Shown here piece after piece: positions 2,336-29,099 of a stretch of 33,649 bases of DNA (position 1 is the first letter of the stretch; each line of letters opens with the position of its first letter). The stretch is from Nanobdellota archaeon (GTDB lineage Archaea; Nanobdellota; Nanobdellia; Pacearchaeales; GW2011-AR1). The notes beneath the pieces were generated by a model. It made no database searches and was not told where the DNA came from. It saw only the letters and a list, made by a program, of their open reading frames with translations. Both the position numbers and the translations under genes were made by a program. The stretch lies in assembly GCA_027364705.1 (NCBI GenBank), contig DAHXOU010000045.1, positions 1-33,649 of the forward strand. Reading direction: 5' to 3'.

Positions 2336-4591
2336 ATGGATAAGGATAAAATTATCATCAAAGGAGCAAGAACACATAATCTCAAAAATATTTCTTTGGA
2401 GATTCCAAAAAACAAAGTTGTAATATTTACAGGAGTTTCAGGTTCAGGAAAATCATCTCTAGTTTTTGATACCATTTATACTGAAGCGCAAAGACAGTTA
2501 ATAGAAACATTTTCATCTTTTGCTCGAGCAAGAATGCCTAAACTTTCCAAGCCAGATGTAGATGAAATAAGAAACATATCGACGGCAATTGTAATCGACC
2601 AGAAAAGGATGGGAACAAATTTAAGAAGCACTCTCGGAACAGCAACTGAACTTTACACTTATCTCAGACTTTTATTTTCTCGTGCTGGAGATAAATGGAT
2701 TGGTCCTTCATTTTTATTCGGATTTAATCATCCTCTTGGAATGTGTTCAGAATGTAAAGGTTTTGGAAAAAAAATAATTGTAGATGTAGATAAATTAATT
2801 GACAAAGAAAAAACTATTCGTGAAGGGGCAATTACTCACCCAGACCACAAAGTTGGCGGTTGGAACTGGAGAGAAATGGTAGCTACAAATTTATTTGACG
2901 TAGATAAAAAGCTAAAAGATTTTTCAAAAAAAGAGATGAACGATTTACTCTATGCTAAAGCAATTCCAATTGAAAAAAAACACGGAGCAGGAACATACGC
3001 TAAAGTTTTCGAAGGTATTGCAAGAAGACTTGAAAAGGCTTATCTGAATAAAGCAGAGGATGAATTGCCTGCAGAAAAGAAAAATGCATATCAAAAGTAT
3101 TTCATTTATTCAGATTGTGATTCCTGTCATGGCTCAAGAATAAATGAGAAAGCAAGAAGTGTTAAGGTAGAAGGAAAAACAATTCCTGAAGTTGTAAAAA
3201 TGGAATTAACAGAACTGGATAAATATCTAAGCACAATAAAAGGAGACATTGCAAAACCGATGGTTACCAAAATGCGACAGATTCTTTCACATATGATTGA
3301 AATAGGAATCGGATATTTATCTCTGAATCGTCCTGTTGCAACATTGTCTGGTGGAGAAAGTCAGAGAGTAAAAATGGCAAGGCAATTAGATTGCGATCTG
3401 ATAAATTTAATGTACATTTTAGACGAGCCTTCTATCGGTCTTCATCCAAGAGATAATCATAAATTAATTGAAATGCTTGGAAAATTAAGAGATAAAGGAA
3501 ACAGCGTATTTGTCGTCGAGCATGACCCAGATATAATCCAATCTGCAGAGTATATAATTGATATAGGCCCACATGCAGGAACAAAAGGCGGAGAAGTTGT
3601 TTATGCCGGACCTGCAAAAGGAATAAAAGATTCTAAGGGACTGACAGGAGAATTTTTGTCAAAGAAATTAAAAATATATGATAAAAGAAAAGAATGGACA
3701 GATTTCATCGAGATAAAAAATGCAACACTTCATAATTTAAAGAATGTCTCAACAAAAATTCCAAAAGGAATTCTAACTTGCATAACAGGAGTTGCTGGTT
3801 CTGGAAAAAGCAGTTTGATTAATGATTTATTCTTAAAACAAAATCCCGATGCAATTGTAATAAACCAGTCACCTGTTGGAAAATCATCGAGGTCAAATCC
3901 TGCAACTTACGTCGGGATATTTGATAACATAAGAAAAGAATTTGCAAAAGAAACAAAAACAAATCCTTCGTTGTTCAGTTTTAATTCAAAAGGCGCCTGT
4001 CCGAATTGTAAAGGTCTTGGAACAATATCTTATGAAATGAGTTTCCTCGATGAAGTCAAAGTAACCTGTGACGTGTGTCAGGGAAAGAGATACACCGAAG
4101 AAGTTTTGAAATTAAAGTATAACGGAAAAAATATATCAGATATTTTGAATATGACAATTTTTGAATTAAAGAATTTTTTCAAAGACCCAGAAATCAAAAG
4201 AAAACTGCAAGTATTATGCGATGTTGGATTAGAATATCTCGAAATCGGACAGCCACTGAGTACATTATCTGGAGGAGAAGCCCAAAGAATAAAATTAGCA
4301 TCAGAACTCCACAAAAAAGGAAATATTTATGTTATGGATGAACCGACAACAGGATTACACATGTCGGATATTAAAAAATTACTTGAGATAATAAAATCTC
4401 TCATCGACCATAATAATACCGTAGTTGTAATAGAACATAACTTAGATGTTATCAGACACGCAGATTGGGTTATTGACCTTGGCCCAGAAGGCGGAAACAA
4501 AGGCGGAGAAATATTATTTGAAGGAACTCCTGAAGATTTAATCAAAAGCAAAAAAAGTTACACGGCAGAATATCTCAAGAAAGTATTGTAA
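2336..4591 (+). CDS. UvrA-like ABC ATPase, short class (UvrA2/DrrC-like, lacking the UvrB-binding domain)
   Basis: Walker [15 protein letters not shown] and [10 protein letters not shown], two LSGGE-QR signatures, CxxC zinc modules; [22 protein letters not shown] runs almost directly into [17 protein letters not shown]. Confidence 0.88.
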
Positions 4592-25749: not shown

Positions 25750-25817
25750 ATCTATTATTTAAATTTTTTTAAAACAATAATCATAAAAACTGTTGACTAT
25801 TTCTTTTTCTATGACAA

Positions 25818-25880
25818 TCAGCCCTGAGCACAAATTTAGTGGGAAATTCGAGCGGAAGAAACCGGAGGTGTCGTCGCATG
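25818..25880 (+). repeat. Copy A of a diverged ~60-nt dispersed element; putative structured leader/ncRNA
   Basis: tcagccctgagcacaaatttagtgggaaattcgagcggaagaaaccggaggtgtcgtcgcatg aligns with copy B at 29037-29099. Confidence 0.6.
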
Positions 25881-26843
25881 ACTAAAAGAACTTACGAACC
25901 AAAACCATTATTTCTTGAAAGAATGAAAAAACTTCTCGGAAATGATTTTGAAAATTATATGAAAATTCTGAAAGAAGACCCAGTTCGTTCTTTTCGTTGC
26001 AATACAATAAAAATTTCTCCTACAGATTTGAAAAAACGTCTTGAAGATAAAGGATGGAAAATAAAAATTCCTTTCAAAGATTATCCTGAAATTATGATTG
26101 TTGAAAATAAACTCCAGCCAGGAGAGTTAGGAAGAAGTTTAGAACATTTGCTGGGATATTATTATATCCAGGAAATTGCGAGTATGCTTCCTGCTCTTGT
26201 TCTAAATCCAAAAAGCAATGAAAGAGTTTTAGATTTGTGCGCGTCGCCAGGAAGCAAAACAACTCAAATGGCGTCGATGATGAAAAATTCTGGATTGCTA
26301 ATCGCAAATGAAGTTAAAGTCGGAAGAATAAAAATTCTCGCAGCAAATATTGAAAGATGCGGAGTCATGAATATAATTATGACAAGAAGAGATGGAATTG
26401 CATTGTGCAGAAGATTCAAGGAAGAAAATTTTCTATTTGATAAAATTCTGCTTGATGCACCATGTTCAGGAGAAGGAACAATAAGAAGTACACCTTCAAC
26501 ACTTGAAATGTGGAATATAAAAACAATTGAAAATCTTTCGAAGTTACAGAAATCACTAATCGCTTCAGCAATAGAAATTCTCAAACCCAACGGAGAATTA
26601 GTTTATTCCACTTGCACTCACGCGCCAGAAGAAAATGAAGAAGTCTTGGATTTTGCATTAAAAAATTTTAAAGTCAAAGTTGAAAAAATATCTCTGCCAA
26701 TGAAAACAAATCAGGGAGTTACAAAATGGATGGAAAAAGAATATCTTGACGATGTAAAATATTCATGCAGAGTCTATCCCCACACAGCTGATACCGAGGG
26801 ATTTTACATTTCTAAAATTAAAAAGTTGAAAACCAAAAATTAA
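25878..26843 (+). CDS. NOL1/NOP2/Sun-family RNA m5C methyltransferase (track start 25839)
   Basis: RSFRCNTIKI, VLDLCASPGSKTTQMASMM, ILLDAPCSGEGT, VYSTCTHAPEENEEVLDF. ATG 25878 preferred because 25839-25877 is repeat copy A. Confidence 0.9.
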   Translation: MTKRTYEPKPLFLERMKKLLGNDFENYMKILKEDPVRSFRCNTIKISPTDLKKRLEDKGWKIKIPFKDYPEIMIVENKLQPGELGRSLEHLLGYYYIQEIASMLPALVLNPKSNERVLDLCASPGSKTTQMASMMKNSGLLIANEVKVGRIKILAANIERCGVMNIIMTRRDGIALCRRFKEENFLFDKILLDAPCSGEGTIRSTPSTLEMWNIKTIENLSKLQKSLIASAIEILKPNGELVYSTCTHAPEENEEVLDFALKNFKVKVEKISLPMKTNQGVTKWMEKEYLDDVKYSCRVYPHTADTEGFYISKIKKLKTKN

Positions 26844-26844
26844 A

Positions 26845-27453
26845 ATGAAAACAAAAATGGATTATCTGATTAAAGAACTAAAGGAACACTTACCATTCAC
26901 AACATTAGCAACAGTGATTTCAATGGCCTCGATTTTATTGTTATTAAAAATTAATTCAATAAATTCATTTGTTCCTTTTTTCTACGTATTTCACCCAGCA
27001 CACATACTTTTTTCGGCGATGGTTTCAAGCGCTATGTTTTATTATTACAAGAAAAATATTTTATTTTCAATACTGACAGGATTGTTCATCTCAATAATAA
27101 TCGGCTCAATCTCAGACGTATTATTTCCTTACTTAGGAAGTTCATTATTAGGAATACCTATCTCATTTCACCTTCCTGCAATAGAAAATCCAGGATTAAT
27201 TTTAGGAGTAGGATTAATCGGAGCAACTTTTGGTGCAATAATTAAAAAAACAAAATTCCCACATTTCATCCACGTTTTTATCTCGGTGTTTGCTTCACTG
27301 TTATACATCTTTGCATACTCAACAAATTTTTCATGGGTAAGTTTAATTCTTATCTTAATTATAACTTCAATATCCGTCGTAATTCCGTGCTGTTTGGGAG
27401 ATATAGTCCTGCCAAGATTATTTCAAAATAAAATAAAAAGGAAGACAAAATGA
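26845..27453 (+). CDS. Multi-pass membrane protein, hypothetical
   Basis: Five or more hydrophobic segments, tightly spaced between the NSUN gene and 27450 ORF. Confidence 0.6.
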   Translation: MKTKMDYLIKELKEHLPFTTLATVISMASILLLLKINSINSFVPFFYVFHPAHILFSAMVSSAMFYYYKKNILFSILTGLFISIIIGSISDVLFPYLGSSLLGIPISFHLPAIENPGLILGVGLIGATFGAIIKKTKFPHFIHVFISVFASLLYIFAYSTNFSWVSLILILIITSISVVIPCCLGDIVLPRLFQNKIKRKTK

Positions 27454-27944
27454 TTCCACTAAAATTTTTCAATAAACAGGAAAAGGAAAAATTCATAAAA
27501 AAATTGAATGAACAATTCGGGATAAAAGAAATTCCGTTTGAATTAGCAAAACTCGGAAAAGAAAGAATCATGGCATTTTCAGGAGAGCTTTCAGAAAAAG
27601 AAATTTTGGAACTTGACAGAATTGCAAGGATAGAAGGAATTGGAGTCTACTTTGCAAAAATCGACGAGAACACAAAAGAGATAAGACTAAGTATTGAAGG
27701 AGTACAATTAATGCAAGAACAAATAACAAAAAATATTTTCGAACTCGACGAGAAACAAGCAGAGCAATGGATGATGGGGCAGGAAATAAATATTACTACG
27801 GGAAAAAAAGGATTTTACATTATGAGATACAAAAATGATTTTTTAGGAACCGGAAAAATATCTATAGAAAAAATCAGCAACTTCATTCCAAAAAGCAGAA
27901 GATTAAAATACAAAGAAAATAAGATAGAAGAATTAAAGCAATAG
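27450..27944 (+). CDS. PUA-like/RsmF C-terminal-like RNA-binding protein
   Basis: LSIEGVQLMQEQITKNIFELDEKQAEQWMMGQEI and NDFLGTGKISIEKISNFIPKSRRLK resemble the PUA-like tail of NSUN enzymes. Confidence 0.6.
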   Translation: MIPLKFFNKQEKEKFIKKLNEQFGIKEIPFELAKLGKERIMAFSGELSEKEILELDRIARIEGIGVYFAKIDENTKEIRLSIEGVQLMQEQITKNIFELDEKQAEQWMMGQEINITTGKKGFYIMRYKNDFLGTGKISIEKISNFIPKSRRLKYKENKIEELKQ

Positions 27945-27948
27945 TAAA

Positions 27949-28839
27949 ATGACACTCACATCAAGTCAAAAACAAAAAAGTATCAGGGCAGGAGAAATTG
28001 CTAAAGAAGTAAAAAAATGGATAAAACCCCAAATAAAAAAAGGAATGACTCTTTTAGAAATTGCAGAAAAGATTGAAGATAAAATAAGAGAACTAAAAGG
28101 GAAACCGGCTTTTCCAACAAACCTTTCAATAAATGAAATTGCTGCACATTACACTCCTTCTTACAGTGATGAAACAAAAGCAAATGGTTTATTAAAAGTA
28201 GATTTTGGAATTCACGTCGACGGCTGGATTGCAGACACAGCTTTTTCAGTTGATTTAGAAAACTCAGAAGAAAATAAAAAATTAATTGAAGCAAGCAAAG
28301 AAGCTTTGAAAAATGCAATTAAAGAAGTTGGAAAAAAAAGCTCACTTGGAGAAATTGGAAGAGTTATTCAAGAAACAATTGAATCTAAAAAATTTTCTCC
28401 GATAATAAATCTAACAGGACATCAGATGGAAGAGTATGAACTTCACGGAGAACAGACAATTCTAAATATAGAAAATTCAAGACAGGAAATTCTTGAAGAA
28501 GGTTTGTATGCAATTGAACCATTCGCAACAACAGGTTCTGGAAAAATTTACGAAGGAAAACAATCAGGAATTTATATTTTAATTAATGGAAAAAATGTCA
28601 GAAGCCCTGAAGCAAGAAAAGTTCTGGATTTTATCGGCGATGAATATCAGACTCTGCCATTCTGCTCAAGATGGATTGTAAAAAAATTTGGAACAAAATC
28701 CCTCTTCGCATTGAAACAATTAGAAGACAACGGAAATCTTCATCAATACCCGCAATTAGTTGAAGCATCTCACGCAAAAGTTTCACAAGCAGAAAACACA
28801 ATTCTCGTAGATGGCGGAGTTATTGTAACAACAGAATAA
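27949..28839 (+). CDS. map: Methionine aminopeptidase, type II/archaeal
   Basis: FPTNLSINEIAAHYTPS, KVDFGIHVDGWIADTAFSVD, NLTGHQMEEYELH, YAIEPFATTGSG. Confidence 0.93.
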   Translation: MTLTSSQKQKSIRAGEIAKEVKKWIKPQIKKGMTLLEIAEKIEDKIRELKGKPAFPTNLSINEIAAHYTPSYSDETKANGLLKVDFGIHVDGWIADTAFSVDLENSEENKKLIEASKEALKNAIKEVGKKSSLGEIGRVIQETIESKKFSPIINLTGHQMEEYELHGEQTILNIENSRQEILEEGLYAIEPFATTGSGKIYEGKQSGIYILINGKNVRSPEARKVLDFIGDEYQTLPFCSRWIVKKFGTKSLFALKQLEDNGNLHQYPQLVEASHAKVSQAENTILVDGGVIVTTE

Positions 28840-28841
28840 AA

Positions 28842-29030
28842 CTATATTCCGTATTTCTTTGAAACTTCAGATTCACAAGTAGGGCAACAACCATCACTAA
28901 TATTTTTGTAAAGATTCAAACTCAGCTCATAAAGTTCAGGGTCTTCTTTTTCAGACAACCATCTATCTTTATCGTCGATTAAAATACTTTTACAATAAGC
29001 ACATCTTGTTAATATTTTTTCAATTGTCAT
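28842..29030 (-). CDS. Small zinc-finger-like protein (two CxxC pairs)
   Basis: CAYCKS...CCPTCES in 62 aa. Confidence 0.55.
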   Translation of the reverse strand: MTIEKILTRCAYCKSILIDDKDRWLSEKEDPELYELSLNLYKNISDGCCPTCESEVSKKYGI

Positions 29031-29036
29031 TTTTTT

Positions 29037-29099
29037 ATCAGGCGTGACCCAAATTTAAAGGGAAGGTTAAGCGAAGGAAACCGATTAGGTGTCCTCGCT
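29037..29099 (+). repeat. Copy B of the ~60-nt dispersed element (intergenic)
   Basis: atcaggcgtgacccaaatttaaagggaaggttaagcgaaggaaaccgattaggtgtcctcgct aligns with copy A; ends at the cdc48 stop codon. Confidence 0.6.

What the first reader, a model, noticed from the sequence alone, without database searches (positions are those of the whole stretch)
25818..29099. Two diverged copies of an unnamed ~60-nt structured element (A 25818-25880, B 29037-29099)
Seen: A tcagccctgagcacaaatttagtgggaaattcgagcggaagaaaccggaggtgtcgtcgc and B tcaggcgtgacccaaatttaaagggaaggttaagcgaaggaaaccgattaggtgtcctcgc align over their whole length with small indels. B folds as AGCGA(A)GGA / TCCTCGCT with an inner ACC-GATTA-GGT. 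A can make the equivalent GCGG..GA / TC..TCGC with an inner ACC-GGA-GGT, so the apical loop varies in length while the ACC/GGT closing stem is kept. CAC/GTG (A) and CCC/GGG (B) can pair around the shared AAATTTA. A is the leader of the NSUN methyltransferase gene; B is intergenic beside cdc48. Plus-strand AT-rich TATA-like sequences lie roughly 25-30 nt upstream of both. Inference: a small ncRNA, leader element or short mobile repeat. I could not match it to a riboswitch, box C/D RNA or H/ACA RNA I know.
Basis: partly seen in the sequence, partly recalled or inferred. Interest (0 to 1): 0.75.

Follow-up and report, generated by a model that had tools for sequence, protein, structure and literature searches.

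The report
Strand-polarised mobile hairpin repeat in Pacearchaeota
The two look-alike 60-letter stretches belong to an apparently undescribed family of tiny mobile DNA hairpins, scattered through the genomes of very small archaea, that almost always lie on the same DNA strand relative to chromosome copying, and some of which seem to have been reused as translation-start leaders for genes.

Summary
In detail: A and B are diverged copies of one element. It is not a two-copy curiosity. The genome has about 9 copies, sister genomes 11-61, and 124 of 211 genomes of the order have at least one. No Rfam family matches. The 3' hairpin (GCGAAGGAAACC/GGTGTCCTCGC) is supported by strong covariation. Syntenic comparisons show insertions of about 60 bp that are absent from sister species, so the element is mobile. 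In a 623-kb contig all 28 copies lie on one strand whatever the gene orientation. Across contigs, 51 of 52 free copies agree, and the element lies on the A+C-rich strand wherever neutral skew is significant. The few exceptions abut a start codon or a tRNA 5' end. Copy A belongs to a subtype whose loop creates a Shine-Dalgarno sequence. That subtype abuts an ATG and carries a short ORF overlapping the start codon (8 of 9 such copies abut an ATG, against 0 of 80 others). Best reading: a non-autonomous palindromic element inserted strand-specifically at replication forks, with some copies exapted as leaders. The mobilising enzyme is unknown, and no Y1 transposase or TnpB was found in the genus.

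The parts
25818..25877 (+). Copy A of the element (start-codon-abutting subtype, GGA loop)
   Evidence: CM R1 hit 63.9 bits, E 1.2e-16; alignment with B
25852..25877 (+). A: 3' hairpin GCGGAAGAAACC-GGA-GGTGTCGTCGC; its 3' arm and loop hold the Shine-Dalgarno sequence
   Evidence: covarying helix 2
25864..25870 (+). GGAGGTG, 7-nt complement of the 16S 3' end (CACCTCC), 7 nt before the ATG
   Evidence: sequence; 16S tail GGATCACCTCC seen in sister genome G005
25811..25885 (+). Short upstream ORF MTISPEHKFSGKFERKKPEVSSHD*, overlapping the methyltransferase start codon
   Evidence: translation; the same arrangement in the other GGA-loop leader copies
25878..26843 (+). RsmB/F (NSUN-type) methyltransferase gene served by leader A
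   Evidence: PF01189 E 9.4e-54
29038..29098 (+). Copy B of the element (free intergenic subtype, GATTA loop)
   Evidence: CM R1 hit 86.3 bits, E 2.3e-23; site empty in G005 and G003
29071..29098 (+). B: 3' hairpin GCGAAGGAAACC-GATTA-GGTGTCCTCGC; its end abuts the cdc48 stop codon
29100..31403 (-). cdc48 (AAA+ ATPase) gene whose stop codon is abutted by B
   Evidence: PF02359, PF00004, PF02933
28842..29030 (-). 62-aa ORF on the other side of B, no Pfam match

Best explanation
A and B are two members of a family of ~60-nt mobile palindromic elements (a weak 5' hairpin plus a strong 3' hairpin) that carry no protein of their own. Shown: the element is repeated, has inserted at many sites that are empty in sister species, keeps its 3' hairpin by compensatory change, and is oriented by chromosome strand rather than by genes. 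Inferred: it inserts as single-stranded, hairpin-forming DNA into the lagging-strand template of the replication fork, using a factor supplied in trans, which fixes its polarity. Its 3' (CTCGC) end often lies exactly at a gene edge. Copies that landed in front of a start codon have been kept and tuned as leaders (subtype A). In these the apical loop became GGA, which creates a GGAGGTG ribosome-binding site, and a short ORF through the element overlaps the gene's ATG. Inferred for A: a ribosome translating that short ORF opens the hairpin and re-initiates on the methyltransferase gene (translational coupling).
For: Copies: 8 at E < 1e-8 in its own genome plus a nested long form; 11-61 per genome (E <= 3e-4) in G002-G004; 124/211 genomes of the order. 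Mobility: 45 of 48 syntenic comparisons lack the element, many with gaps shorter by ~60 nt, e.g. B's site in G005 reads GTCATTT|TATCCTAAATAAC; head-to-tail tandem copies. Structure: 119 distinct copies, 8 of 10 pairs of helix 2 change on both sides, 90.5% paired, 0/500 shuffles reach the score. Polarity: 28/28 copies at E < 1e-4 on one strand of a 623-kb contig with 417 + and 279 - genes; 51 of 52 free copies agree within contigs, p = 2e-14, and the one exception abuts a tRNA-Gly 5' end. The element lies on the A+C-rich strand at third codon positions in 8 of 8 contigs with significant skew; in G005 that skew begins at orc1/cdc6. Leader subtype: GGA-loop copies abut an ATG in 8 of 9, other loops in 0 of 80, p = 1e-10; all 10 abutting GGA copies found carry an overlapping upstream ORF. 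Gene edges: 3' end of the element within 6 nt of a gene in 22 of 56 free copies, 5' end in 3 of 56, about 10 expected.
Against: No candidate transposase: no Y1 transposase or TnpB above cut-off in the genus, though the genomes are incomplete drafts. No terminal inverted repeats, and no target duplication was visible at the empty sites examined. Leading and lagging strands are inferred from base skew and orc1/cdc6 position, not from mapped origins, and the 0-100 kb block of G005 has no skew. Skew agrees in 15 of 18 contigs in total; G002 C9 shows none. There are no transcript or translation data. The genus g51 genomes show mixed strands among low-scoring hits.
Confidence: 0.6

Rival explanations
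1. A polar DNA signal (like Chi, KOPS or a fork-processing site): copies are placed anywhere, and selection keeps only the orientation that works with replication or segregation.
For: Near-absolute strand polarity of free copies and agreement with strand skew; conserved hairpin.
Against: Sites are not conserved between sister species (45 of 48 empty); copy number varies from 1 (G001) to 61 (G002) within one genus, odd for an essential signal; low density (28 in 623 kb).
Confidence: 0.15
2. A structured RNA (small ncRNA or cis-regulatory leader) that spread by duplication.
For: Helix covariation; subtype A sits at start codons; G-T mismatches outnumber A-C in helix 2, 19 to 10, slightly favouring the + strand as the folding strand.
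Against: Free copies ignore gene and transcript orientation; no Rfam match; nearly all compensatory states are Watson-Crick with few wobble intermediates.
Confidence: 0.1
3. A mobile archaeal tRNA-type (bulge-helix-bulge) intron family that also lands outside tRNAs.
For: In other genera copies lie in what read, by hand, as tRNA anticodon-intron positions (L019, L037, L047, L026), in either orientation; a second repeat family sits in tRNA T-arms.
Against: Most copies are intergenic, with no exon to restore; both orientations occur at the tRNA site, which a spliced structure would not normally tolerate; no bulge-helix-bulge motif was demonstrated.
Confidence: 0.07
4. A remnant of an IS200/IS605-type transposon (end hairpin or omega-RNA end).
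For: Single-strand hairpin, no target duplication at clean sites, lagging-strand polarity as for IS608 (PMC6006769).
Against: No TnpB (PF07282 above cut-off) and no Y1 transposase (PF01797) in any of six genus genomes; none found beside a copy.
Confidence: 0.08

Closest known systems
REP / REPIN elements with their Y1 transposases (RAYT / TnpA-REP)
   Same: Short, mostly extragenic palindromic elements, many copies, also in tandem, mobilised in trans as non-autonomous units; Y1 enzymes act on lagging-strand ssDNA (PMC3116915, PMC6006769)
   Different: No GT[AG]G foot, not an inverted pair of REPs, no Y1 gene in these genomes, near-absolute strand polarity, and a subtype exapted as start-codon leader
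IS200/IS605 insertion sequences
   Same: Hairpin ends, no visible target duplication, insertion polarity tied to the lagging strand (PMC6006769)
   Different: No TnpA or TnpB, whole element only ~60 nt
MITEs and small mobile repeats such as Rickettsia palindromic elements
   Same: Tiny non-autonomous repeats, sometimes read in frame inside genes (here L063, L064, L066, L010)
   Different: No terminal inverted repeats at the two ends, different sequence and host, polarity by replication strand
Archaeal tRNA introns linked to mobile elements (Caldiarchaeum tRNA-Thr, PMC3293823)
   Same: Insertions in and beside tRNA genes with partial tRNA duplications (L011, L017, L018)
   Different: There a 1.9-kb element with a recombinase gene; here a 60-nt element with no gene, mostly outside tRNAs

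Membership tests
REP / REPIN | GT[AG]G tetranucleotide at the 5' foot of the hairpin | tested here: not met
   Consensus around helix 2 is AAGGTTAAGCGAAGG..CCTCGC, with no GTAG/GTGG foot on either strand
REP / REPIN | Cognate Y1 (RAYT/TnpA-REP) transposase gene in the genome | tested here: not met
   PF01797: no match in G000-G005; one in G034, three in G052; draft genomes
REP / REPIN | Many short extragenic palindromic copies | tested here: met
IS200/IS605 or TnpB-associated element | TnpA (Y1) and/or TnpB gene between hairpin ends | tested here: not met
MITE | Terminal inverted repeats | tested here: not met
   Ends TCAG.. and ..CTCGC are not inverted repeats of each other
MITE | Target-site duplication | tested here: inconclusive
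   None seen by eye at the clean empty sites; 12-14 nt duplications beside tRNAs in L011, L017, L018
Archaeal bulge-helix-bulge intron | Bulge-helix-bulge motif at exon-intron junctions | not tested
   Only position in tRNA genes was seen
Known Rfam RNA family | Covariance-model match | tested here: not met
   No match at gathering score; none for A at E <= 5; none to the element in eight loci at E <= 1
Start-codon leader with overlapping upstream ORF (copy A subtype) | Shine-Dalgarno plus ORF overlapping the downstream ATG | tested here: met
   function itself not testable here

The most novel reading that the evidence does not exclude
A new kind of archaeal mobile DNA: a gene-less two-hairpin element inserted in one orientation only relative to fork movement, by a host enzyme not of the Y1 class, landing exactly at gene edges and repeatedly domesticated into a 'ribosome-binding site plus overlapping short ORF' cassette that gives genes translational coupling.
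Probability: 0.3. Interest if true: 0.85.

Novelty: new variant of a known kind. Interest (0 to 1): 0.72.

Why it matters
It would give uncultured DPANN archaea a widespread, apparently unreported mobile repeat whose orientation marks replication direction, so that replichores could be read from draft genomes. It also offers a visible case of a mobile element being reused many times as a translation-start leader. It sets a concrete open question: what enzyme moves a 60-nt hairpin in genomes that seem to have no Y1 transposase.

Tried and rejected
TnpB tail or omega-RNA origin: the peptide tails of the long copies suggested it, but no TnpB was found in the genus. Y1/RAYT partner: none in the genus. 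Reverse transcriptase: only a broken one in G004 and one in G052. Leaderless-tRNA idea (that tRNA-abutting copies could not be processed): RNase P RNA is present in all seven genomes tested. A third copy in the window at 3441: weak local alignment inside a coding region, not found by the covariance model. Viral contigs: one degenerate core pattern gave no match. Conserved peptide as the primary unit: rejected because subtypes A and B read the core in different frames. Integron attC: considered from memory only; no cassettes are seen and it was not pursued.

Full report
Observation. A (25818-25877) and B (29038-29098) are real, full-length, diverged copies of one sequence: local alignment score 59 against a maximum of 36 for 2000 shuffled pairs, at G+C 0.48-0.52 in a 0.32 window. 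A precedes an RsmB/F (NSUN-type) methyltransferase gene and B abuts the stop codon of cdc48. No Rfam family matches the window at gathering score, A at E <= 5, or the element in eight related loci at E <= 1.

A family, not a pair. Searching the own genome with B found 8 matches at E below 0.003, seven of them element copies at E below 1e-7 and 89-100% identical. A covariance model R1 built from 19 copies finds 8 copies at E < 1e-8 in the genome, and a nested long copy lies at C29:9650-9751. In 211 genomes of the order, 124 have matches at E <= 0.01. Within the genus, G002 has 61, G003 17 and G004 11 at E <= 3e-4, and G005 has 28 at E < 1e-4 on one contig. Named relatives are Candidatus Pacearchaeota / Nanoarchaeia genomes, so the window is from that group (inference).

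Structure. On 119 distinct copies, helix 2 (GCGA.GGA.ACC / GGT.TCC.TCGC) is paired in 90.5% of cells, and 8 of its 10 pairs show changes on both sides. The covariation score of the whole structure is 0.285 against 0.134 in shuffles, and sliding the partner destroys it. Most variant states are Watson-Crick; G-T cells outnumber A-C cells in helix 2 by 19 to 10, a weak hint that the written strand is the one that folds. The alignment was fitted to the model, so the counts lean towards it, but the unfitted starting alignment shows the same. The 5' helix is weak in this genus; other genera read CYTGAG-loop-CTCAAGG there.

Mobility. I compared flanking orthologous gene pairs between G000, G002, G003 and G005. 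In 45 of 48 comparisons the element is absent from the second genome, often with a gap shorter by about 60 nt. Aligned sites show the insertion directly; B's site in G005 is GTCATTT|TATCCTAAATAAC, and the G003 copy at C30:2645 is missing in both G005 and G000. I saw no target duplication at these sites by eye. Tandem copies with a ~60-nt period occur in G002 and G005. In other genera copies also lie within or beside tRNA genes, three copies in all having 12-14 nt duplications of the tRNA end (L011, L017, L018), and some copies are read in frame inside genes (L010, L063, L064, L066).

Polarity. In the 623-kb contig of G005 all 28 copies with E < 1e-4 are on the minus strand, although genes are 417 plus and 279 minus. 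In G002, C4 has 16:0 free copies, C9 0:8 and C8 0:4. Removing copies that abut a start codon and merging tandem copies, 51 of 52 further copies in a contig share the strand of the first, p = 2.4e-14. The exception (G002 C5:60785) abuts a tRNA-Gly 5' end, and two opposite-strand copies in G002 (C4:28042, C9:6194) are start-codon leaders. So gene-abutting copies follow the gene and free copies follow the chromosome. Third-codon keto skew, corrected for gene orientation, puts free elements on the A+C-rich strand in 15 of 18 contigs and in all 8 contigs where the skew was tested per gene and is significant. In G005 the skew starts at orc1/cdc6 (99.95 kb) and reverses after 600 kb. Outside the genus, G034 shows its minus-strand exceptions on plus contigs abutting tRNAs. 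Reading this as fork polarity is inference, since no origin has been mapped. IS200/IS605 elements are known to insert into the lagging-strand template (PMC6006769), which is the model for the proposed mechanism.

Gene edges and exaptation. Among free copies in short gaps, the 3' end of the element lies within 6 nt of a gene in 22 of 56 and the 5' end in 3 of 56; about 10 would be expected. In G034 and others the 3' end lies exactly at a tRNA 5' end. Copies whose apical loop is GGA, like A, abut an ATG in 8 of 9 cases on the genus contigs, against 0 of 80 for other loops. The loop change creates GGAGGTG, complementary to the 16S tail GGATCACCTCC, 7 nt before the ATG in A. All ten abutting GGA copies found carry a short ORF overlapping the downstream start codon, nearly all of them in the same reading frame with a KPEV-type ending; in A it is MTISPEHKFSGKFERKKPEVSSHD*. 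In other genera GCA/GTA-loop copies also abut ATG exactly. The mechanism proposed for A (read-through of the short ORF opens the hairpin and re-initiates) is inference. ORFs were called by a simple longest-ORF rule.

What moves it. No TnpB and no Y1 transposase reach cut-off in six genus genomes, and only a broken reverse transcriptase was found in the genus. The genomes are drafts, so absence is not proof. Literature searches for a prior description found none, within an open-access library only.

Verdict. Mobile repeat family: about 0.97. Strand-specific insertion at the fork as the cause of polarity: about 0.6. Copy A as an exapted leader: about 0.8 on pattern, untested for function.

Noticed in passing
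G005 C3 and G002, G003, G000 contigs (e.g. L086, L085, L098); none in the window: A second ~54-nt repeat family (GAGAGTTTTCACGARTGC..GAGTGGGGGCTCGAGTT) occurs alone, in what look like tRNA T-arms, and nested inside long copies of the first family; G005 has 12 minus and 2 plus copies.
   Followed up: partly
L047 (JANBVM010000047.1), 321-346: A contig labelled Patescibacteria carries the element inside what reads as a tRNA-Tyr gene; probably a misbinned archaeal contig.
   Followed up: no
L011, L017, L018: Copies beside tRNA-Gly, tRNA-Lys and tRNA-Thr are flanked by 12-14 nt duplications of the tRNA end.
   Followed up: partly
G005 C3:99951-101048: orc1/cdc6 marks the start of a long block of strand skew that reverses after 600 kb; the 0-100 kb block has no skew and one element.
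   Followed up: partly
L094, G002 C5:60785: The 3' hairpin is replaced by TATTAGGAACC..GGTTCTTAGTGTC, another small palindrome, in two copies.
   Followed up: no
window 25878-26843 and 27450-27944: RsmB/F methyltransferase core and its PUA-like domain are encoded as separate genes.
   Followed up: no
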